The notes below the pieces were generated by a model. It was not told the DNA's origin. It ran no database searches and was given only the letters and a program-made list of their open reading frames with translations. A DNA stretch of 27,544 bases from a virus, in the IMG/VR virus record IMGVR_UViG_3300041405_000081, positions 1-27,544 of that record. One strand, 5' to 3'. Shown here piece by piece: positions 737 through 27,544 of the stretch. The translations under genes were made by a program, and so were the position numbers. How positions within the stretch are numbered: the first letter of the stretch is position 1; each line of letters opens with the position of its first letter.

Positions 737-1080
737 GTGAAGTAGTGACGTTGTTGCGTAAGTGTCAGCTATTGTTACAGAAACCTGAGCCTTGGAATAA
801 TGCAATGGAAATCATTCCAATGCGCAAGGCTTTGGTACAAGCATCTCGCGATACCAAGCTGTCTGATCAGGAACGTTTCGATCTGTTGAGCGCGGCTGAA
901 GCTTGTAAGATGGCAGTTAACTATCGTCCAGTGATGGCTCGTGATATTAAGCCAAGGTTGTATGGTCATGAGTCACTTACCGCCAAGTGTCGTAAGGTGG
1001 TAGTGAAGTTGGCTGAACGTTTTGAGTTCAAAGCTACCCCACTCGCTCTTGGTGTTAAGCACTACTTCGCAATTAAGTAA
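733..1080 (+). CDS. Hypothetical phage protein, 115 aa (GTG start)
   Basis: Not recognised. It starts at GTG 733 in a GTGA overlap with the preceding stop. The sequence is basic and predominantly helical, with no known motif. It is the last gene of this operon: an ATAC-loop hairpin at 1101-1120 follows within 25 nt of the stop. Confidence 0.75.
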   Translation: MSEVVTLLRKCQLLLQKPEPWNNAMEIIPMRKALVQASRDTKLSDQERFDLLSAAEACKMAVNYRPVMARDIKPRLYGHESLTAKCRKVVVKLAERFEFKATPLALGVKHYFAIK

Positions 1081-1100
1081 TACTGATGATGGGTATAGTG

Positions 1101-1139
1101 TAGGAGTCATACGGCTCCTACCTAAACCTTTCATTTTTT
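1101..1139 (+). terminator. Hairpin terminator with ATAC loop and distal T-tract
   Basis: TAGGAGTC (1101-1108) pairs with GGCTCCTA (1113-1120), 8 bp including one T-G wobble, around loop ATAC. A run of six T lies at 1134-1139, 13 nt past the stem. A hairpin with the same loop and closing pairs occurs at 7021-7038. Confidence 0.6.
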
Positions 1140-1156
1140 GTCTCATAGGAAACTCC

Positions 1157-2224
1157 ATGTCTAATAATCGCACTTTCATCGTACTCGACGGCCCTGACTT
1201 CTCTGGTAAATCCACGCTGATGGAAGCCTTCGTTAAGCGCGTTGAAGCAGAAGGAATCGAACACGTTGCAATGCGTGAACCCGGTTGCCAACCTAACGTA
1301 GGTTCGGTAGCTGAAGAAATCCGTGAACTGTTGATCGCTACCCGTGATGAAGTAGTTCAACCTGAAACCGATATCCTGCTGCACATGGGTTATCGTAACC
1401 AGAACGTGAAGAACGTTATCCTCCCAGCACTGGCTGAGAACAAGTGGGTGATCTCGGATCGCTTTGTTTACTCGACTTGGTGCCTGAACGTCCAAGCTCA
1501 CCTGAATACCCATCCGCATCTGACTGAGATCTTCCATGGTTTGATGCCTTACATCCTGAACGGCCTACCTGAACCGTTGACCTTCATTCTGGATACACCG
1601 CGTGAAATCCGTGACCAGCGTGCTGAGTCTAATGCCCGTAAGAAAGATCGCTACGAGTCTCAGGGTAAAGACGTTCATGATCGCATCGAAGCTGCTTACG
1701 AGCAACTGCGTGCATCGCCAAGCTGCGTGTTCTTGGATGGTACCAAGTCTACCGAAGAACTGGTAGAACAAATGTACGAAACCGTTAAGGCTTTCTCTGA
1801 GAACATCACTCAGCAACTGACTGATCCTACTGCTGAAGATCGTGAAGCTGTTCTACAGAACGCTCCGAAGACTGCTGAAGAACACGCGCAAGCAATGCGT
1901 GATGAATTGGATGCTGATACCGAGTGGGATCTGGAAACTAAGCTGCGTGAGTATGTTAAGACTTACATCACGGATATCGCTGAGCAATTGTTCCCCGGTG
2001 CGAAAGATGAGAATCTGGAACGTCTGCGTAAAGACGGTGAAACCTTTGCATACAAGACTGCTAAGGCCGCATTCAAAATCTCTGGCGAAGACCGTACACT
2101 GTTCCACCCTTCTCGTGTTGGTCAAGTCAACCAGAAAGTTCACTCTGTACTGAACTACAGTTTCATGCGTGAAATGTGGGAAAAGCATTTCGTAGAAAAC
2201 GACATCACGGTAGTTGAGGCATAA
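1157..2224 (+). CDS. tmk: Thymidylate kinase with extra C-terminal domain
   Basis: Phosphorylates dTMP to dTDP with ATP, supplying dTTP for phage DNA synthesis. I choose ATG 1157, preceded by AGGAAAC, because the longer frame back to 1022 would run through the upstream gene and its terminator. P-loop GPDFSGKST lies at residues 12-20, the dTMP-binding REPG at 40-43, DRFVYST at 101-107 (family DR-Y/F-xxS signature) and an arginine-rich lid at about 153-168. The kinase fold is complete by about residue 215, near the usual family length. Residues about 220-355 form an additional, mostly helical charged domain (LREYVKTYITDIAEQLFPG, ending NYSFMREMWEKHFVEND) that I do not recognise. Kinase assignment is firm; the role of the extension is unknown. 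Confidence 0.93.
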   Translation: MSNNRTFIVLDGPDFSGKSTLMEAFVKRVEAEGIEHVAMREPGCQPNVGSVAEEIRELLIATRDEVVQPETDILLHMGYRNQNVKNVILPALAENKWVISDRFVYSTWCLNVQAHLNTHPHLTEIFHGLMPYILNGLPEPLTFILDTPREIRDQRAESNARKKDRYESQGKDVHDRIEAAYEQLRASPSCVFLDGTKSTEELVEQMYETVKAFSENITQQLTDPTAEDREAVLQNAPKTAEEHAQAMRDELDADTEWDLETKLREYVKTYITDIAEQLFPGAKDENLERLRKDGETFAYKTAKAAFKISGEDRTLFHPSRVGQVNQKVHSVLNYSFMREMWEKHFVENDITVVEA

Positions 2225-12522: not shown

Positions 12523-14652
12523 TTAACGCATCCAAGCCGGAACCATTGGCTTCACAGGTTCTTGGAAAACGAAGTTCTTCTTGTCGATTTCGATGTCGTA
12601 TTGTTCAAACGCTTTGCTCAAGGCTTTATGCAGAATGACGAGATCATCGAATTCACCAGCATCCGCACACTCCATGGCAACCGTTTCATACTCAGTACCT
12701 TCAACCATCGGAGACTTGATACCCATAATTTCCTCAACTTGAGACTGAGACCACGCTAAGATATCAGCGCTACGGGTTGAGATGTTAGGGATTTCACCAG
12801 TATCCAGCACGCATTGATAAACGTAAGTCTGTGAGTCTTGACCCAGTCGATAGATACGTGAGATCGCTTGTTCCAGAATGTAAGCACGGAATGGTGAGTT
12901 CAACAGAATCATTGTGTCAGCCATCGTCAGACGTACACCCGTGGACAACGAGGCATAAGTAGCAATCAATGGGTTCAGTAACTGGTCGTCATCAAAACGC
13001 TTAACGGTGTTTGCAAGGTCGTGTGAGGTCTTTCCGTAAACAACCACGGGCTTCATACCTAGGTTGATCGTGTGTGCCTCAGCGGCGTCTACAGCCTCTA
13101 CAAAGCTGGTAAACATGATGGTCTTCTTCTGGGTAGACTCAACAATCCCTACCCAGTCAATATGAGGTACCATAGCTACGTTAGCTTCAATACGCATGCC
13201 ACCCACAACACGTCCCAATACTTCACCTTGGATCTTGAGGTTAACGTATTTGACGACAGACTTAACATCACGGAACCGATGCATGTATTCTTTTGGCAAC
13301 AGTTTCTCGAAGACGTTCTTCTCAAAAGCGTTAGCTCGTTTCATCTCATCACCCAAGAACCTAGGGTCAGGTGTCTTAGAGATCAAATGCACCAGATAAA
13401 GGTATTCGTCGAACTCGATCATCTTCTGACGATCTTTAATACCTGACCGTGCGATCTTAACGCAGTTGTCCCAGAACTTTAGGTCTTCCGGTCTACGGGC
13501 CTTATAGTAGTCAGCTCGTTCACGGATGAATTTCTCCATCGTAATTCGAATCGCCGGTAACGTAAAGCGTTCACCACCAGGTACCTTGATTGGATAAGGT
13601 CTCATGATTGGAGGTAATAGTTCAGCAGAAGCTTCACCTTTCTCAACCTTGTAAGACACTACACCTAATCGGTGACGGATAATATCCAGACCCTTAGAGG
13701 CTTCTTTGCCGTACATCTTGCGGAAGATAGCTTCTACCTGTGGAGTGAACATTGGGTCTACTACGCGGAGCAGCGTAATGATCTCAGCACCCAGTGCTTT
13801 AACTGGAGTGCCCGAACCCTGAAGGTTATCTTGAGAACCTAGCAACTTCACCAATGCCTGATACTGCATACTGCGTGCAGAGTTTGGGTCATTCATGTTG
13901 TGTGATTCATCAAGGATGGTCACCACGCGTTTGTTGCGATATACATTCGGATTCTGAAAGATCTCCATCAACTTAGGCATTGCATCATAATGACAGATGA
14001 TCCAACGTTGACCTTTATATTCCATCGGCTTGCCTGAGTGCCAGATCGTTTGCGGAGCTTTAAACATCTCCATGATCGATTCCACCCAAACCGATTCCAG
14101 TACGACCTTAGGACAGAACACCACTACGAGTTCTGCATCGAGCATTTCAGCGATAGCCGAAGTGATATAGGTCTTACCCGTACCAGCAGCTGCCGCAATC
14201 AAGTCCCCTTGTAAACCATACTGATCCAGACGGTACGAGTAGTTCTCGAAGTATTCCATCTGGTAAGGCTTAGCTGTAAAGGTGAGGTTACTCAACTTAC
14301 GGAAATCTAGTCGACCTTTAACCGTAGTGCGATCGATCGGCTTAGTGTTCTGTAGCCATGTGTTTTCCATCATGGCTTCGATGATGCTATTAATAGCCTT
14401 AACGCTAGTCCAACGATTGCGATACAGTTTAATGTTCTCGAGGATGTACATTATCTCAGGAGCAAAGAATTTATAGAAACTAAATGAACCACCACTGATG
14501 GTGTTGAAGATGTTCTGAGAGATACGAGTCGTCTTCCAATGCTTATCCATATCACGGATAATATCTTTGGCTCTGATGCCAGATACGACGATCTCAGTAT
14601 TAGTCTCTTTAACGGTAACATTACCGAATAGAGACCTGAATGAGTCAATCAT
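12523..14652 (-). CDS. SNF2/superfamily 2 DNA helicase-translocase, 709 aa
   Basis: ATP-dependent nucleic-acid translocase of SNF2/DEAD-like superfamily 2. Motifs in order: adenine-contact KPYQMEYF at 128-135, Walker A AAAGTGKT at 154-161, DESH at 248-251 (motif II), GSGTPVK at 279-285 (motif III), TIMFTSF-type start of the second RecA domain, then SLSTGVRLTMADTMILL (motif V) and QAISRIYRLGQ at 595-605 (motif VI with arginine finger). Residues 1-125 and the last 100 carry no known motif. Start ATG 14652 has AAGGAC upstream. It is the promoter-proximal gene of an operon that otherwise encodes virion proteins. It probably acts in phage replication, recombination or transcription; the exact role cannot be told. 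Confidence 0.92.
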   Translation of the reverse strand: MIDSFRSLFGNVTVKETNTEIVVSGIRAKDIIRDMDKHWKTTRISQNIFNTISGGSFSFYKFFAPEIMYILENIKLYRNRWTSVKAINSIIEAMMENTWLQNTKPIDRTTVKGRLDFRKLSNLTFTAKPYQMEYFENYSYRLDQYGLQGDLIAAAAGTGKTYITSAIAEMLDAELVVVFCPKVVLESVWVESIMEMFKAPQTIWHSGKPMEYKGQRWIICHYDAMPKLMEIFQNPNVYRNKRVVTILDESHNMNDPNSARSMQYQALVKLLGSQDNLQGSGTPVKALGAEIITLLRVVDPMFTPQVEAIFRKMYGKEASKGLDIIRHRLGVVSYKVEKGEASAELLPPIMRPYPIKVPGGERFTLPAIRITMEKFIRERADYYKARRPEDLKFWDNCVKIARSGIKDRQKMIEFDEYLYLVHLISKTPDPRFLGDEMKRANAFEKNVFEKLLPKEYMHRFRDVKSVVKYVNLKIQGEVLGRVVGGMRIEANVAMVPHIDWVGIVESTQKKTIMFTSFVEAVDAAEAHTINLGMKPVVVYGKTSHDLANTVKRFDDDQLLNPLIATYASLSTGVRLTMADTMILLNSPFRAYILEQAISRIYRLGQDSQTYVYQCVLDTGEIPNISTRSADILAWSQSQVEEIMGIKSPMVEGTEYETVAMECADAGEFDDLVILHKALSKAFEQYDIEIDKKNFVFQEPVKPMVPAWMR

Positions 14653-15353: not shown

Positions 15354-15776
15354 ATGGATCGTATCGCAATTGTGGAAGCTGTAAAAGCATTCTGTGAAGC
15401 TAACAACGTATCAATCGATGATATCGTGGTAGGTTATGGTGCAGCGGCTGTAATGCATGGTATTCGTCACACTACGAATGATATTGATGTAGACGTTCAC
15501 GAATCTGAGTTTGAAGCAATTCAAAAGCTTGATGGAATCATGGGTAAAGGTTTGACAGGTGAATTTGTATCGATTGGTGATATAGACTTCCATGTGGAAG
15601 AACATACCGATTTCGTACTGATTGATGGAATTTGGGTTGTTGGTGCTAGAACCCTGTTACGTCAATATCGCTGGTTGTTCAATCATCCAGAGCGTATGCC
15701 TGAAAAACGTAAGAAAGATTTGATGGTTATCAAAGCTCTTACTGTACCCGCTGCTAATACTGCGTTAGCTGCTTAA
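15354..15776 (+). CDS. Minimal nucleotidyltransferase-fold protein, 140 aa
   Basis: Predicted Pol-beta/MNT-superfamily nucleotidyltransferase. The signature runs GYGAAAVMHGIRHT then NDIDVDV (residues 27-48), matching the G-G/A-x-A...HG-x-R-x-T-x-D-I-D pattern of AbiEii/MNT-like and related enzymes. D43 and D45 would bind metal, and a third acidic position is D78 in GDIDFHV. A helical tail follows (ARTLLRQYRWLFNHPERMPEKRKKDL), where the KRKKDL end resembles that of AbiEii-type domains. Members transfer NMPs to proteins, tRNA or drugs; the substrate here is unknown. GGAG lies upstream, as does a TATATTAC element. A terminator follows, so it stands as its own unit directly before the candidate structured RNA. 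Confidence 0.82.
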   Translation: MDRIAIVEAVKAFCEANNVSIDDIVVGYGAAAVMHGIRHTTNDIDVDVHESEFEAIQKLDGIMGKGLTGEFVSIGDIDFHVEEHTDFVLIDGIWVVGARTLLRQYRWLFNHPERMPEKRKKDLMVIKALTVPAANTALAA

Positions 15777-18752: not shown

Positions 18753-19027
18753 TGCGCTTACTCAAATCTGAAACTGAAACACGTTATAGTGAAGGTCGTA
18801 GTGGTGGGCGTGAAGACATAGTGATGTATCCAGAGCAGTTATGTAATCACGACATCATGCTTTGGCGTCTTGAACTCAACCATGACCGAAGTCGTGGAGA
18901 AGCTCATCCATATTCTTTAATCGGGATGCCTAGAGCGAATGACATAGCTGGTCCCACCCGTGATCCACACAACCGTGTCAAAGACTTTAAAGCTGTATCA
19001 GAACAAATTCTTCGTAATCATACCTAA
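18752..19027 (+). CDS. Small polar protein, 91 aa
   Basis: Not recognised. ATG 18752 overlaps the previous TAA; the in-frame TTG at 18746 is rejected. The first third is polar (SETETRYSEGRSGGREDI), then a helical stretch PEQLCNHDIMLWRLELNHDRS, and the tail TRDPHNRVKDFKAVSEQIL. It ends 10 nt before the AAA+ ATPase, so it is probably co-transcribed with it. Confidence 0.68.
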   Translation: MRLLKSETETRYSEGRSGGREDIVMYPEQLCNHDIMLWRLELNHDRSRGEAHPYSLIGMPRANDIAGPTRDPHNRVKDFKAVSEQILRNHT

Positions 19028-19037
19028 GGTAAATACA

Positions 19038-20189
19038 ATGAACGCTGTTGCTAAAATCGATTTCAATGCCCTGCAAGCTGAAGCCAACGACAAAGAATTC
19101 GAAGGTATCTCTGACGTAGTTCGTCAAGAGATGAAAATCTTCAACTCCAATCTGGAGCTGTTGCGCGGTGACAACATCTACGACGTAGTTCGTTTGTACT
19201 TCTCCACCAAAGGTCAGCACTCCGAGCAGTATGAACTGCTGGTCGACATTCCTCACGGTGGTACCAAAGAAGAGTCGGCTCTGGAAGTTACTCGTGTGGT
19301 TTCGGAAGACATTCTGGCTAAGGCTGGTCTGCGTATGATCCGTTGCGTTATGGGTCGTGTGATCGTTTCTGATAACGCTATCGTCGGTGCTCTGGTAAAC
19401 CCTGCGGTAACTGCTACTAAGGCCACCTACGATGTACTGGGTCTGCCTGTATTCTGCGAGTGGTTCAAAGAGAAGTTTGCTGAGAAGCTGCAAGCTAACC
19501 CAACCAAGTATCTGACTCGTATCCGTGTGGATGGTCAAGGTAATCTGGTTACGGTTATGGAAACCATTCAAGGTAACCGTAGCGTTCCAGATATCAGCAA
19601 GTTTTACCCGAACTTCAATTTCACTCCAGCCGATCTGATGAAGCAGTTTGAGGAATCGAACTCGAACGTCATTTTGATCTACGGTGTACCGGGTACCGGT
19701 AAGTCGAACTGGATGATGGAAATGATCAACGCTCGCGGTTGGGACGATAAGATCTATTTGGCTGACCGTATGGACGTACTTGGTCACCCTGGGTTCCCAG
19801 ACTTCGTGCGTGAACTGCCAGCAGGGTCGATCGTATTGACTGAAGACTCTGACGTGCTGGTACAGAAGCGTACTGAAGGTAACGTGAGTATGTCCGCTCT
19901 GCTGAACGCCACTGCTGGTATCGTGGCTCGTGACGTTAAGCTGATCATCTCGACTAACTTGACCAGCACTCGTGATATCGACGAGGCTCTGTTGCGTAAA
20001 GGTCGTTGCTTCCGTACTCTGAAGTTCAAACCGATGAATGCACAGCAAGCTTGCGAGATTCGTGAGATGCTGAATTTGGACCCATTCGAGTTCAAAGCCA
20101 ACGCTACCGACATTACTCTGGCTGAGGCAGTCAATGCTCACGAAGTCAATGAAGATGAATCCACCGGCATGGGTTTCGGCGGTCGTTAA
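19038..20189 (+). CDS. AAA+ ATPase, 383 aa
   Basis: ATP-driven remodelling protein. I choose ATG 19038 after AAGGTAAATACA; the longer frame from 18960 lies inside the previous gene. N-terminal residues 1-200 form an unknown domain, probably for substrate or partner binding. The ATPase domain has Walker A GVPGTGKS at 216-223, Walker B SIVLTED at 264-270, sensor-1 asparagine N307 in ISTNLTS, and DEALLRKGRCF at 315-325, matching the arginine-finger region D-x-A-L-x-R-x-GR of classical AAA proteins (FtsH/Bcs1-type). The C-terminus ends STGMGFGGR. Codon use here is richer in GC-ending codons than in its neighbours, suggesting high expression. A strong terminator follows, so it ends its operon. The substrate is unknown. 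Confidence 0.9.
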   Translation: MNAVAKIDFNALQAEANDKEFEGISDVVRQEMKIFNSNLELLRGDNIYDVVRLYFSTKGQHSEQYELLVDIPHGGTKEESALEVTRVVSEDILAKAGLRMIRCVMGRVIVSDNAIVGALVNPAVTATKATYDVLGLPVFCEWFKEKFAEKLQANPTKYLTRIRVDGQGNLVTVMETIQGNRSVPDISKFYPNFNFTPADLMKQFEESNSNVILIYGVPGTGKSNWMMEMINARGWDDKIYLADRMDVLGHPGFPDFVRELPAGSIVLTEDSDVLVQKRTEGNVSMSALLNATAGIVARDVKLIISTNLTSTRDIDEALLRKGRCFRTLKFKPMNAQQACEIREMLNLDPFEFKANATDITLAEAVNAHEVNEDESTGMGFGGR

Positions 20190-24398: not shown

Positions 24399-24523
24399 AA
24401 CACGTCGCTCTAGTGAAGTCTAATATTGCTAAGCGATATCGTCGAAATGCCATTATCGTGAAATGGCGTGAGTTGAGGAAACGCAATGAGGAAAGGTTAT
24501 GTCGCTATCGTGGGATCTCGTGA
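24344..24523 (+). CDS. Overlapping small basic protein, 59 aa
   Basis: Easily overlooked gene. ATG 24344 has GGAG 9 nt upstream, overlaps the end of the previous gene by 55 nt and the start of the next by 38 nt, and fills an otherwise empty 87-nt gap. The product opens MEWEFNWIEQNTHLYNSIEH and turns strongly basic (KRYRRNAIIVKWRELRKRN), an amphipathic helix that could bind nucleic acid or a partner protein. Function unknown. Confidence 0.62.
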   Translation: MEWEFNWIEQNTHLYNSIEHVALVKSNIAKRYRRNAIIVKWRELRKRNEERLCRYRGIS

Positions 24524-25136
24524 GGTCCCGCTAGACGAACTTGAGTTGATGATCCGTATAGGGCGCACCATGACTGATATCGGCCTTGCTGATTCCAGTG
24601 GTGACGCATTTGGTTCTGATAAGGCTGGCTGGTGGGGAGCTAAACAATCTCGTGCTTATAGCGAGGTTGGCGCTCGGATCTATCTGACCGATTCCCGTAA
24701 GGCTCGTAATCGAGCTGCTGAACACCCGTTCTTTATTATCGCTGAAGATCATCCTGAGTGCTGGGACATGGCTAAGACCTTAGCCTTTAATGCTCGGGGT
24801 AACTTCAACGGTTTGAATGATTACGGGATTGGACTGCATACTCGTAATGCTTATCAGATTCATGGTCACACCCTAGCGGAAACCGTGAAGATGTTGATCT
24901 ATTACGCTACCCCGGTTGGTGCGGTAGAACGTGAATTCGTTAGCGGTGGTACCAATACGGCACTGCGGTTGTCGGTAATGGCTGAAGTTCCGGTACGTGT
25001 CAACCTTGCAACTGAGAAGGGTCTAGAATGGGCTGAAGAGTTCCTTTCACGACACGAAGAAGATTATCCGTACGTAGAAATCGATTGGCATCAAATCCTT
25101 AAACATGATGATCCCCGACTGGAGCACTTAACTTGA
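24486..25136 (+). CDS. SLOG/DprA-like Rossmann-fold protein, 216 aa
   Basis: Predicted nucleotide- or nucleic-acid-binding protein of the SLOG (DprA/LOG-like) superfamily. Visible motifs: IVGSREVPLDE at residues 8-18 (GSR signature), SSGDAFGSDKAGWWGA at 37-52 in the place of the usual SGGA-x-G-x-D loop, and SGGTNTALRLSVMAEVPVRV at 153-172, a second glycine-rich loop before a hydrophobic strand. Members bind single-stranded DNA, nucleotides or nucleotide-derived signals; some are sensors in defence systems. ATG 24486 follows GAGGAAACGCA. The next gene starts in a TTGA overlap. The ligand cannot be decided here. Confidence 0.82.
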   Translation: MRKGYVAIVGSREVPLDELELMIRIGRTMTDIGLADSSGDAFGSDKAGWWGAKQSRAYSEVGARIYLTDSRKARNRAAEHPFFIIAEDHPECWDMAKTLAFNARGNFNGLNDYGIGLHTRNAYQIHGHTLAETVKMLIYYATPVGAVEREFVSGGTNTALRLSVMAEVPVRVNLATEKGLEWAEEFLSRHEEDYPYVEIDWHQILKHDDPRLEHLT

Positions 25137-25923: not shown

Positions 25924-25965
25924 AATACTCAGCGGGCCTATCGAATATAGACATTGGAGGCTCAC

Positions 25966-26331
25966 ATGAGTTTTGAAACCACACATAAAGGTAATCTCTG
26001 GACCCATAGCAAAACAGCGAAAGGGAAAGGAGGTCGTCGTGATCTGGTAAAGAAAGGTGTGTATGTAATCGACCACCGTCCAACTGGTCGTTTCATTATA
26101 GGTGCATCTACGGACGTATCTAAAGAAGTGGATAAGCAACTAGCCTTACTGGAGAAGGGTAAGTTCCCGATCAAGTTAATGCAGCGGTTATATGACACAG
26201 CTGATGACAATAAGGGTAACCCACCAGCAATGGTTGTCGTTGAGTATCCACTCAAGTCTGACAAAGACATTAAACTCACGATGGAAGAAATCCGTCGTTC
26301 CAACACTACCCCGTATTGCTTACTGAATTGA
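25966..26331 (+). CDS. GIY-YIG-like protein lacking catalytic arginine, 121 aa
   Basis: Probable GIY-YIG-fold domain. ATG 25966 has GGAGG upstream. After a basic N-terminus (KTAKGKGGRRDLVKK), GVYVID at 31-36 and GRFIIGASTDVSKEVDKQL at 41-59 match the GIY...YIG-x-S-x-x-x-x-x-R-x-x-x-H pattern in order and spacing. The catalytic arginine and histidine positions are occupied by non-matching residues (around K53-E54). The helix LLEKGKFP and a later strand/helix (MVVVEYPLKSDKDI, EEIRRSNTTPYCLLN) fit the rest of the fold. It could bind DNA or RNA without cutting it. The family call is moderate, the loss of activity an inference. Confidence 0.6.
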   Translation: MSFETTHKGNLWTHSKTAKGKGGRRDLVKKGVYVIDHRPTGRFIIGASTDVSKEVDKQLALLEKGKFPIKLMQRLYDTADDNKGNPPAMVVVEYPLKSDKDIKLTMEEIRRSNTTPYCLLN

Positions 26332-26338
26332 GGTTACA

Positions 26339-27145
26339 ATGAACGATGCACTTGGCGATCGGATGAAGCTATACGAAGGGACTTACGCTCAACAGCGCTT
26401 CCTTCCAGGCTTGCCGATTGTAGCTCGAATTGATGGACGTGGTTTTAGCAAGTTTACCCGTGGTATGAATCGTCCGTTTGATCAGACAATGTCCGACGCG
26501 ATGATCCACACAACCAAAGAACTAGTGAAACATACTCAGGCTTCGGTTGGTTATACCCAGAGTGATGAGATCACTTTGATTTGGTATTCGGACGACTTCA
26601 AGTCCAAAGTATGGTTCGATGGCCGTGTACAGAAGATGACTAGCCTGCTGGGTGCTCACGCTACTCTGTACTTCAACCAGTTCGTTAACAAGCACATGCC
26701 TCAGTACGCTAAACGTAACCCGACGTTTGATGCACGAGTGTGGAATGTACCCACGTTGCAAGAAGCTTTGAATGTGTTGATCTGGCGTGAATGGGATGCT
26801 ACCAAGAACTCCATTCAGATGGCTGGACACAACTATTTCTCTAACAAGCAACTGCACAAAAAGAACACTAGTGAAATTCAAGAGATGTTGTGGTCTCAAC
26901 ACAATGTCAATTGGAATGATTACCCACGGTTCTTCAAACGTGGTACTTATGTGGGTTGGCAAGTGATGTCAGGTGATCGTCAACTGACTGAAGCCGAAAT
27001 TAAGTTATTGCCGCCGAAACACAATGCCCGTAAGACAGGTGGTTACATCAGTAAAGAAACCCGAGCATTGGTAGAATTCGACATTCCGCCACTCACCCAA
27101 GTTGTTGGTGCCATCGATCTGTTCTTTAACCGGAGTGAGAAGTAA
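26339..27145 (+). CDS. Thg1-like tRNA-His guanylyltransferase, 268 aa
   Basis: 3'-5' nucleotide-adding enzyme of the Thg1/Thg1-like family. Family motifs: VARIDGRGFSKFT at about 28-40 with metal-binding D32, YTQSDEITLIW at 72-82 with D76 and E77, QKMTSLLGAHATLYFNQF at 98-115, and VWNVPTLQEALNVLIWRE...NSIQ at 134-159. Length is close to the family norm. Eukaryotic members add G-1 to tRNA-His; bacterial and phage Thg1-like proteins are known mostly for repairing 5'-truncated tRNAs by templated addition, so repair of tRNAs cut by host defence nucleases is a reasonable inference. ATG 26339 has TGAGG upstream. Confidence 0.93.
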   Translation: MNDALGDRMKLYEGTYAQQRFLPGLPIVARIDGRGFSKFTRGMNRPFDQTMSDAMIHTTKELVKHTQASVGYTQSDEITLIWYSDDFKSKVWFDGRVQKMTSLLGAHATLYFNQFVNKHMPQYAKRNPTFDARVWNVPTLQEALNVLIWREWDATKNSIQMAGHNYFSNKQLHKKNTSEIQEMLWSQHNVNWNDYPRFFKRGTYVGWQVMSGDRQLTEAEIKLLPPKHNARKTGGYISKETRALVEFDIPPLTQVVGAIDLFFNRSEK

Positions 27146-27544
27146 ATGGAATGTAATCATAATCCACAAGTGGTCACTATCGCCGTAGAGATGTATAACG
27201 AACTAGTGGCCATGGCTAAGTCACCTGAACGGCACTATACACCAAAGCGTATTGAACGCCATGCTCGTAAATTCAACCCACATCTTCAACCAGAGCACCA
27301 AAGGCGAGTACTAGAGTTTGAAAGCCGACGCACTAAACGTATCAGCCAGTGTCGTGATGTTTTGAATGCAAGTAAAGGGAAGTTGGTATTTGTTGAAACC
27401 TCTGTGAATTTCAGTTCAAAGAAACTTGAAGATCTGGTGTTTACACCGATGATCGTCAAGCGTATCAACAAAGAGAATCGGGGATGCTTGGATGTATACA
27501 AGCAGGATGAAACTAAATTTGGTTTCTATTCCAAGTCAGTAGTT
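27146..27544 (+). CDS. N-terminal part of a gene cut by the window edge
   Basis: ATG 27146 directly follows the Thg1-like stop; GGAG is about 11 nt upstream. The frame stays open for 133 codons to the right edge with no stop. It begins MECNHNPQVVTIAVEMYNEL, has a strongly basic helical stretch (PKRIERHARKFNPHLQPEHQ, then RRTKRISQCRD) and then strands (KLVFVETSVNFSSKK). Not recognised. The abutting start suggests co-expression with the Thg1-like enzyme. Confidence 0.75.
   Translation, partial: MECNHNPQVVTIAVEMYNELVAMAKSPERHYTPKRIERHARKFNPHLQPEHQRRVLEFESRRTKRISQCRDVLNASKGKLVFVETSVNFSSKKLEDLVFTPMIVKRINKENRGCLDVYKQDETKFGFYSKSVV

What the first reader, a model, noticed from the sequence alone, without database searches (positions are those of the whole stretch)
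26339..27145. Phage-encoded Thg1-like 3'-5' polymerase
Thg1-like proteins are rare in phages. Here the enzyme is intact at all metal-binding positions and no tRNA gene is present in the window, so it must act on host tRNAs or on phage tRNAs elsewhere. Repair of tRNAs damaged by anticodon or acceptor-end nucleases of host defence is an attractive role.
Basis: partly seen in the sequence, partly recalled or inferred. Interest (0 to 1): 0.5.

Follow-up and report, generated by a model that had tools for sequence, protein, structure and literature searches.

The report
Jumbo-phage Thg1-like tRNA-end repair enzyme
A large Pseudomonas-type phage carries an intact, previously noted kind of enzyme that builds RNA backwards, probably to mend the front ends of host tRNAs during infection; related phages carry it in two different places or lack it, as expected of an optional tool in the phage-host arms race.

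Summary
Window 26339-27145 (+) encodes a 268-aa Thg1-like protein (TLP) with intact metal-binding carboxylates (D32, D76, E77); its predicted structure (pLDDT 94) matches Bacillus thuringiensis TLP best (Z 27.7). The window is a fragment of a relative of Pseudomonas phages 201phi2-1 and Viktualia (Chimalliviridae).

New here: (1) no tRNA-His and no 5'-mismatched tRNA was identified in three TLP-bearing relatives, so host RNA is the likelier substrate. (2) The gene is optional: relative G030 has an exact empty site, and TLP occupies two alternative sites three or four genes apart. TLP sequences disagree with the phage backbone, which implies exchange or old paralogy. (3) The lysine that positions the activating ATP is Arg, and the hairpin arm carries an insert; most close relatives share both.

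Most likely role: templated rebuilding of 5'-truncated host tRNAs. Anticodon cuts alone would give it no template. Counter-defence is plausible but untested; gene-neighbourhood support is moderate (RlaP) to weak (RNA ligases).

The parts
26339..27145 (+). Thg1-like protein (TLP), 268 aa, predicted 3'-5' nucleotidyltransferase/polymerase
26432..26434 (+). codon of metal ligand D32 (BtTLP D30, hTHG1 D29)
   Evidence: alignment; identical in 21/21 and 73/73 rows; roles from PMC3701042
26471..26473 (+). codon of R45, aligned with the activating-ATP lysine K43 of BtTLP (Arg in place of Lys)
   Evidence: R in 67 of 73 A3 rows, 11 of 21 A2 rows
26564..26569 (+). codons of D76 and E77 (BtTLP D75, E76), in the motif QSDE
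26972..27046 (+). insert (about residues 212-236, two short helices) between the two long strands of the hairpin arm; in archaeal MaTLP that arm holds the T arm of the tRNA
   Evidence: secondary structure of the model, hairpin lengths, MaTLP role in PMC6471195 passages
25954..26331 (+). upstream gene, PHROG 13862 'endonuclease', homing-endonuclease-like by a weak match; 7 bases lie between its stop and the TLP start codon
   Evidence: E 0.0054; 'putative homing endonuclease' in Phabio
27146..27544 (+). downstream gene (PHROG 18482, unknown); its start codon directly abuts the TLP stop (TAAATG); cut by the end of the window
24486..25136 (+). DprA-like gene; TLP lies upstream of its homologue in G033 (directly) and 201phi2-1 (one small gene between): the second site

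Best explanation
The gene encodes a TLP-type member of the Thg1 superfamily. Shown here: gene, predicted fold, intact catalytic residues, accessory behaviour. Inferred from characterised relatives: it activates a 5'-monophosphorylated RNA end with ATP or GTP and adds nucleotides 3' to 5', templated by the 3' strand of the acceptor stem, thereby rebuilding the 5' ends of truncated tRNAs. Inferred from the tRNA survey: the substrates are mainly host tRNAs damaged or mis-trimmed during infection, not a phage tRNA-His and not phage tRNAs with 5' mismatches. Because translation for nucleus-forming phages takes place in the cytoplasm (recalled), the tRNA pool stays exposed to host nucleases even though the phage DNA is shielded. 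The gene is kept as an optional module, as expected of a conditional benefit such as counter-defence.
For: Fold: AlphaFold2 model with mean pLDDT 94.4; best match BtTLP 4kgm_B, Z 27.7, 225 residues, rmsd 1.5; ranks 1-14 are all Thg1 or TLP, rank 15 drops to Z 7.2. TLP-type residue M161 where eukaryotic Thg1 has Asn. Bacterial and archaeal TLPs tested so far prefer 5'-truncated tRNAs (PMC6471195 and PMC3701042, passages). tRNAs of TLP-bearing relatives: 201phi2-1 has one tRNA-Leu in an ARAGORN scan of all 16 pieces; Viktualia has Leu, Ser, Asn, Tyr plus one unidentified match below the gathering score in a scan of the whole record; G033 has Tyr, Asn, Trp, the three matches of its whole record. 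All 8 acceptor stems read are paired at positions 1-7 counting G-U. G030, without TLP, has the same three tRNA species as G033. Accessory state: exact empty site in G030; of the 80 Pseudomonas-named records with the backbone helicase I identified TLP in 3 records of 2 phages. RNA-repair genes in relatives: Viktualia RtcB and an RNA ligase, 201phi2-1 an RNA ligase; 39 of 49 TLP records have at least one RNA-ligase family match, and RlaP lies within 5 kb of TLP in 6 of 25 cases, 1.0 expected.
Against: No activity, substrate or phenotype was tested. The window holds no tRNA gene, and none of the window proteins I scanned matched a ligase or RNA kinase family (not every ORF was scanned). RNA ligases are not tied to TLP: Phabio and G030 lack TLP yet have ligase matches, and TLP phages PMBT8 and 2L372D have none. 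RtcB (0 of 14 within 5 kb) and CCA enzyme (1 of 26) show no clustering with TLP, and Rnl1 (3 of 22, p 0.057) and Rnl2 (4 of 45, p 0.065) are weak. I have no ligase base rate for TLP-less jumbo phages. The activating lysine is replaced by Arg, so ATP use may differ. G030's lack of TLP shows that the gene is dispensable at least for some phages.
Confidence: 0.55

Rival explanations
1. [quoted passage not shown]
For: PHROG and record annotations say tRNA-His guanylyltransferase. The authors of phage CBB proposed that it assists the phage's own tRNA (PMC5259590, passages).
Against: No tRNA-His was identified in three TLP-bearing relatives of the window. In 11 other TLP phages with 12 tRNA-His genes, 8 genes encode G at -1, CBB included, and the 4 of alphaproteobacterial phages lack it like their hosts (recalled). 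Pseudomonas encodes G-1 itself (recalled).
Confidence: 0.1
2. 5'-editing of phage-encoded tRNAs with mismatched 5' ends, as in protist mitochondria.
For: Some TLP phages have tRNAs with a mismatch in the first three acceptor pairs: 15 of 315 by ARAGORN, 3 of them tRNA-Met(cat) and one the tRNA-His of CcrPW. The one tRNA found in the stretch of 2L372D held, tRNA-Pro, has C1 opposite A72.
Against: 8 of 8 tRNAs read in Viktualia, 201phi2-1 and G033 are paired at positions 1-7. 300 of 315 tRNAs in 18 TLP records show no 5' mismatch, though my script took the best-pairing 3' offset, which leans to pairing. Some of the 15 may be false or decayed tRNAs, and phiKZ (0 of 7, no TLP) is the only control.
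Confidence: 0.06
3. 5'-end activation rather than polymerisation is what matters: TLP makes 5'-AppRNA (or GppRNA) ends that the phage's RNA ligase can join or that mark or protect RNA.
For: Adenylation is the first step of the reaction, and ligation through a 5' App was proposed for the family (PMC2904730, passages). 201phi2-1 and Viktualia carry an RNA ligase of the PF09414 type.
Against: Ligases occur without TLP and TLP without ligases. R45 replaces the lysine that positions the activating ATP; K43A in BtTLP cut adenylylation about tenfold and left guanylylation virtually unchanged (PMC3701042, passages).
Confidence: 0.1
4. The gene is a passenger moved about by the neighbouring homing-type endonuclease, with little effect on the phage.
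For: It abuts a homing-endonuclease-like gene in the window and Viktualia, occurs at two sites and is absent from G030.
Against: In 201phi2-1 and G033 the TLP is not next to that gene, and G030 keeps the endonuclease without TLP. 21 columns, the catalytic ones among them, are invariant over 73 sequences (the search patterns favoured some of them), which suggests selection for function.
Confidence: 0.12

Closest known systems
201phi2-1 gp319 (Thg1), Pseudomonas chlororaphis phage, Serwervirus, Chimalliviridae
   Same: 72% identical over the whole length, same gene region, same domain
   Different: Sits upstream of DprA, with one small gene between, rather than after the endonuclease gene; groups with G033's TLP
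Viktualia TLP (XYH45631.1)
   Same: 84% identical, same site between the endonuclease gene and the PHROG 18482 homologue
   Different: Its phage backbone is closer to 201phi2-1: helicase and DprA 84% and 88% identical to 201phi2-1, against 78% and 58% to the window
Bacillus thuringiensis TLP (PDB 4kgk, 4kgm)
   Same: Fold (Z 27.7), three carboxylates, Ser, Lys and Arg positions of the two active-site parts, Met in place of eukaryotic Asn161
   Different: K43 is Arg here; the hairpin arm has an insert of about 20 residues not seen in the BtTLP-like phage proteins PMBT8 and BSP36
Methanosarcina acetivorans TLP (PDB 5axk-5axn; the name MaTLP for these entries is recalled)
   Same: Fold, Z 23.3-23.5; the hairpin arm of MaTLP binds the T arm of tRNA (PMC6471195, passages)
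   Different: 28-29% identity over the aligned part

Membership tests
Thg1/TLP superfamily (PF04446) | Thg1 palm domain above the curated cut-off | tested here: met
   103.1 bits against 29.2
Thg1/TLP superfamily (PF04446) | Three catalytic carboxylates | tested here: met
   D32, D76, E77
Thg1/TLP superfamily (PF04446) | Fold of solved Thg1/TLP structures | tested here: met
   model pLDDT 94.4; Z 27.7 to BtTLP, 23.3 to 25.0 for the best chains of human and yeast-type Thg1
Thg1/TLP superfamily (PF04446) | 3'-5' nucleotide addition activity | not testable with these tools
   needs an enzyme assay
Bona fide (eukaryotic) Thg1 | Asn at the N161 (yeast) position, used in adenylation | tested here: not met
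   M161 in the window, as M158 in BtTLP
Bona fide (eukaryotic) Thg1 | Specificity for tRNA-His | not testable with these tools
   not assayed; no tRNA-His identified in three TLP-bearing close relatives
BtTLP-like subgroup (my label) | Activating lysine K43 | tested here: not met
   R45; Arg in 67 of 73 A3 rows, Lys in 9 of 21 A2 rows. It varies inside the family, so it does not define the family
BtTLP-like subgroup (my label) | Short hairpin arm (length taken from the two BtTLP-like phage proteins PMBT8 and BSP36, not from BtTLP itself) | tested here: not met
   48 residues between the two anchor columns against 25 in PMBT8 and BSP36
tRNA 5'-editing system | Encoded tRNAs with 5' acceptor mismatches in the same genome | tested here: inconclusive
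   none among 8 tRNAs read in Viktualia, 201phi2-1 and G033; the window's own phage is only a fragment and could not be tested
Phage tRNA-repair system of T4 type (kinase plus RNA ligase) | RNA ligase and polynucleotide kinase in the same phage | tested here: inconclusive
   RNA ligase present in Viktualia and 201phi2-1; no genome-wide search for a kinase was made; the window is a fragment

The most novel reading that the evidence does not exclude
In nucleus-forming Pseudomonas phages TLP is a swappable counter-defence module: two alleles at two sites are exchanged between phages, and each rebuilds the 5' ends of host tRNAs that a host nuclease has trimmed in the cytoplasm. The Arg-for-Lys change and the insert in the hairpin arm would tune nucleotide use and substrate choice.
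Probability: 0.2. Interest if true: 0.65.

Novelty: new member of a known kind. Interest (0 to 1): 0.36.

Why it matters
According to a 2019 review the function of bacterial and archaeal TLPs in their own organisms had not been fully addressed (PMC6471195, passages). A phage gene with natural presence/absence pairs (G033 with, G030 without), in relatives where no tRNA-His and no mispaired phage tRNA was identified, gives a clean setting in which to ask what a TLP repairs in a living cell. If it answers a host nuclease, that would also point to a defence that damages tRNA 5' ends, which I cannot name from these data.

Tried and rejected
G-1 addition to a phage tRNA-His: not supported in the window's relatives nor in 11 other TLP phages. 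5'-editing of phage tRNAs: not supported in the window's relatives; left open elsewhere because only phiKZ served as control.

RNA-repair gene clustering: I expected strong clustering with RNA ligases and found little. Within 5 kb of TLP: Rnl1 3 of 22 (0.9 expected), Rnl2 4 of 45 (1.5), RtcB 0 of 14 (0.6), CCA enzyme 1 of 26 (1.0), RlaP 6 of 25 (1.0, p 0.0004; 5 of 24, p 0.0025, with two near-duplicate records dropped); the control, ribonucleotide reductase, 2 of 31 (1.5). At 10 and 15 kb only RlaP stays below p 0.05. Six families at three distances were tried without correction, and CBB, GAP32 and XaC1 show RlaP at nearly the same distance, so the RlaP cases are probably not all independent. 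Records: 20 TLP phage records and 29 of the 80 IMG/VR contigs, mostly the larger ones. Before the count I dropped phiKZ, rows under the family cut-off, Rnl2 rows on the same gene as an Rnl1 row, and merged split rows. PF09414 is broad; E. coli and B. subtilis controls also ring.

Synonymous-site dating of the TLP exchange: fourfold sites look saturated (0.31-0.42 identical in TLP), so they say nothing about age. TLP and helicase trees were seen before the clades were tested, so the AU p-values are after the fact.

Around TLP, promoter-like and terminator-like sites are at shuffle level, and only short two-copy repeats and one long-range inverted pair were found, for which no control was run. 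PADLOC: no match for TLP. A plain-sequence IMG/VR scan with the window TLP found no relative, although 201phi2-1 is in that collection. Literature: eight searches were answered; I saw listings, and passages of eight papers, no whole paper and no supplement. I noticed no biochemistry or genetics of a phage TLP in them; the library holds only open-licence PubMed Central papers.

Full report
OBSERVATION. The ORF at 26339-27145 (+) is real and intact: 268 aa, PF04446 Thg1 at 103.1 bits, PHROG 4717 at 295 bits, nearest solved structure B. thuringiensis TLP at E 4.6e-39. It sits in a tight run of + strand genes: 7 bases lie between the stop of an endonuclease-annotated gene and its ATG, a Shine-Dalgarno-like GAGG overlaps that stop, and its own stop TAA directly abuts the ATG of the next gene. 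No tRNA is in the window, which is a 27,544-base virus record, about a twelfth of the genomes of its relatives.

WHERE IT COMES FROM. The TLP is 84% identical to that of Pseudomonas phage Viktualia and 72% to 201phi2-1 gp319; the helicase at 12523-14652 (-) finds the same two first, then Phabio and PhiPA3 at 67%. 201phi2-1 is genus Serwervirus, family Chimalliviridae, the nucleus-forming phages (recalled).

ENZYME. BtTLP D30/D75/E76 align with D32/D76/E77; R30, S75, K99, R133 and E13 also match residues with roles described in PMC3701042 (passages). These eight are identical in 21 of 21 rows of A2, except E13 which falls in a gap of one row, and in 73 of 73 of A3. The position of the eukaryotic adenylation Asn161 is Met, as in BtTLP. 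The lysine that contacts the activating ATP (BtTLP K43) is Arg45 here; Arg in 67 of 73 A3 rows and 11 of 21 A2 rows. In BtTLP, K43A slowed adenylylation about tenfold and left guanylylation virtually unchanged (PMC3701042, passages), so nucleotide use for activation is a specific open question. The AlphaFold2 model has mean pLDDT 94.4. VIA-align gives Z 27.7 over 225 residues to BtTLP; the 14 best entries are all Thg1 or TLP, followed by a drop to Z 7.2. Between strands 203-215 and 236-247 the model has an insert with two short helices; 113 of 133 sequences in a wider set have the long form (38 residues or more between anchor columns), of which 104 also have Arg at the K43 position. Most of that set was chosen by similarity to the window, so the share is inflated; among the 20 phage-collection proteins 9 are long. 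In archaeal MaTLP the hairpin arm holds the T arm of the tRNA (PMC6471195, passages); that the insert here touches tRNA is inference.

SUBSTRATE: WHAT THE tRNA GENES SAY. Of 20 TLP phages taken from the phage collection, 17 have Rfam tRNA matches (18 of 21 records, phiKZ being the TLP-less control; none in 201phi2-1, PMBT8 and 2L372D under strict filters). ARAGORN adds one tRNA-Leu in 201phi2-1, scanned whole, and one tRNA-Pro in the 8.6-kb stretch of 2L372D held. For the other phages I read the stretches around the listed tRNA matches, not whole genomes, so tRNAs outside them may be missed. tRNA-His was found in 11 phages, 12 genes. In 8 of 8 genes from six phages of non-alphaproteobacterial hosts and one metagenomic phage of unknown host (LR745206) the base at -1 is G; the 4 from phages of Brevundimonas, Caulobacter, Sinorhizobium and DSS3_MAL1 (name suggests Ruegeria DSS-3, recalled) have no G there, in line with the loss of G-1 in alphaproteobacteria (recalled). 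So none plainly needs G-1 addition. In the window's own group, Viktualia (Leu, Ser, Asn, Tyr), 201phi2-1 (Leu) and G033 (Tyr, Asn, Trp) show no tRNA-His, and 8 of 8 acceptor stems are paired at positions 1-7, G-U included; a fifth Viktualia match, below the gathering score, is unidentified. TLP phages at large: 15 of 315 ARAGORN tRNAs in 18 records carry a mismatch in the first three pairs, 3 of them tRNA-Met(cat), one the tRNA-His of CcrPW. This leaves host RNA as the likelier substrate in the window's group. Characterised TLPs rebuild 5'-truncated tRNAs on the acceptor-stem template, with little regard to tRNA species (PMC6471195, PMC3701042, passages).

AN OPTIONAL MODULE AT TWO SITES. Of 197 records with the backbone helicase, 80 bear the name Pseudomonas. 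In the TLP list I identified 3 Pseudomonas records, of 2 phages (Viktualia; 201phi2-1 twice); the tally by name ranks Pseudomonas below the ten names shown, the last of which has 4, so at most one more can be hidden. In IMG/VR, G033 (320,858 bases) has TLP and its close relative G030 (324,912 bases) has no match anywhere in the record. In G030 the endonuclease gene is followed at once by the homologue of the window's 27146 gene; TLP is missing with both borders intact, and only about 50 bases separate DprA from the homologue of ORF 23401 at the other site. TLP lies after the endonuclease gene in the window and Viktualia, but upstream of DprA in G033 (directly) and 201phi2-1 (one small gene between); the sites are three or four genes apart. 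The backbone disagrees with this pairing: Viktualia and 201phi2-1 are sisters by helicase (84% identity; branch 100/99), as are G030 and G033 (87%; 100/99), and holding window with Viktualia is rejected by the helicase (AU p 4e-7). In the TLP tree 201phi2-1 joins G033 (95/98); holding Viktualia with 201phi2-1 (AU p 0.017) or window with G033 (p 0.019) is rejected; the fork of window and Viktualia is itself open in that tree and has 0.88 support in FastTree. Identities: window-Viktualia TLP 83%, DprA 58%; Viktualia-201phi2-1 TLP 73%, DprA 88%. Thus the TLP history differs from the backbone and fits the site. Either TLP was exchanged between phages, or an ancestor had two copies and each line kept one; the data do not separate these. 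The clades were named after the trees were seen.

NEIGHBOURHOOD. Viktualia encodes RtcB about 14 kb and a PF09414 RNA ligase about 23 kb downstream of TLP; 201phi2-1 a PF09414 ligase; G030 and G033 both RtcB and a ligase match, so ligases do not follow TLP presence. Over 49 TLP records, 39 have at least one RNA-ligase family match (26 of 28 records of 200 kb or more), and RlaP lies within 5 kb of TLP in 6 of 25 cases with 1.0 expected; ligases and the CCA enzyme show weak or no clustering, the control gene none. One contig (G010, locus L082) has TLP between an Rnl1 and an Rnl2 match with RlaP next, and Vibrio phage D69 has TLP near genes annotated RNA ligase, polynucleotide kinase and nucleotidyltransferase. 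Support for an RNA-repair context is therefore real in places and modest overall.

LITERATURE. [quoted passage not shown] they also found polynucleotide kinase and RNA ligase neighbours in bacteria. [quoted passage not shown] the window, Viktualia, 201phi2-1 and G033 are carriers in that group.

VERDICT. A well-preserved TLP in a nucleus-forming phage lineage: a new member of a known kind. Identity as a Thg1-superfamily protein is near certain (0.97), 5' repair of host tRNAs is likely (0.55), a counter-defence role is plausible (0.35) and untested.

Noticed in passing
L020 289-363 (-) (Aeromonas phage 2L372D): The only tRNA found in the 8.6-kb stretch held, a tRNA-Pro(tgg) about 3.6 kb from TLP, has C1 opposite A72 while the rest of the stem pairs. 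A possible 5'-editing substrate of a phage TLP, or a decayed tRNA.
   Followed up: partly
L082 (contig record G010), around its centre: TLP lies between an Rnl1 and an Rnl2 match with RlaP next and a CCA enzyme about 20 kb on: a compact RNA-repair cluster.
   Followed up: no
window 15354-15776 (+): 140-aa ORF whose sequence looks like a minimal nucleotidyltransferase (motif judged by eye); PHROG 12854, unknown function; no Pfam match at E 0.01. Homologues in G033 and 201phi2-1, none found in the Viktualia, G030 and Phabio stretches.
   Followed up: no
window 18960-20189 (+): AAA-type ATPase (PHROG 14322) with homologues in G030 and G033 (76-78%) and Phabio (54%) but none found in the Viktualia and 201phi2-1 stretches: another gene of patchy presence or place.
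   Followed up: no
window 1022-2224 (+): Thymidylate kinase domain at residues 55-250 with a C-terminal extension of about 150 aa; the true start is probably an internal ATG, since PHROG 16057 begins at residue 46.
   Followed up: no
L014 4001-4804 (Salicola phage SCTP-2): The TLP match begins 63 bases upstream of the annotated start of gene 418, over small gene 417, so the annotated protein probably lacks its N-terminal region.
   Followed up: no
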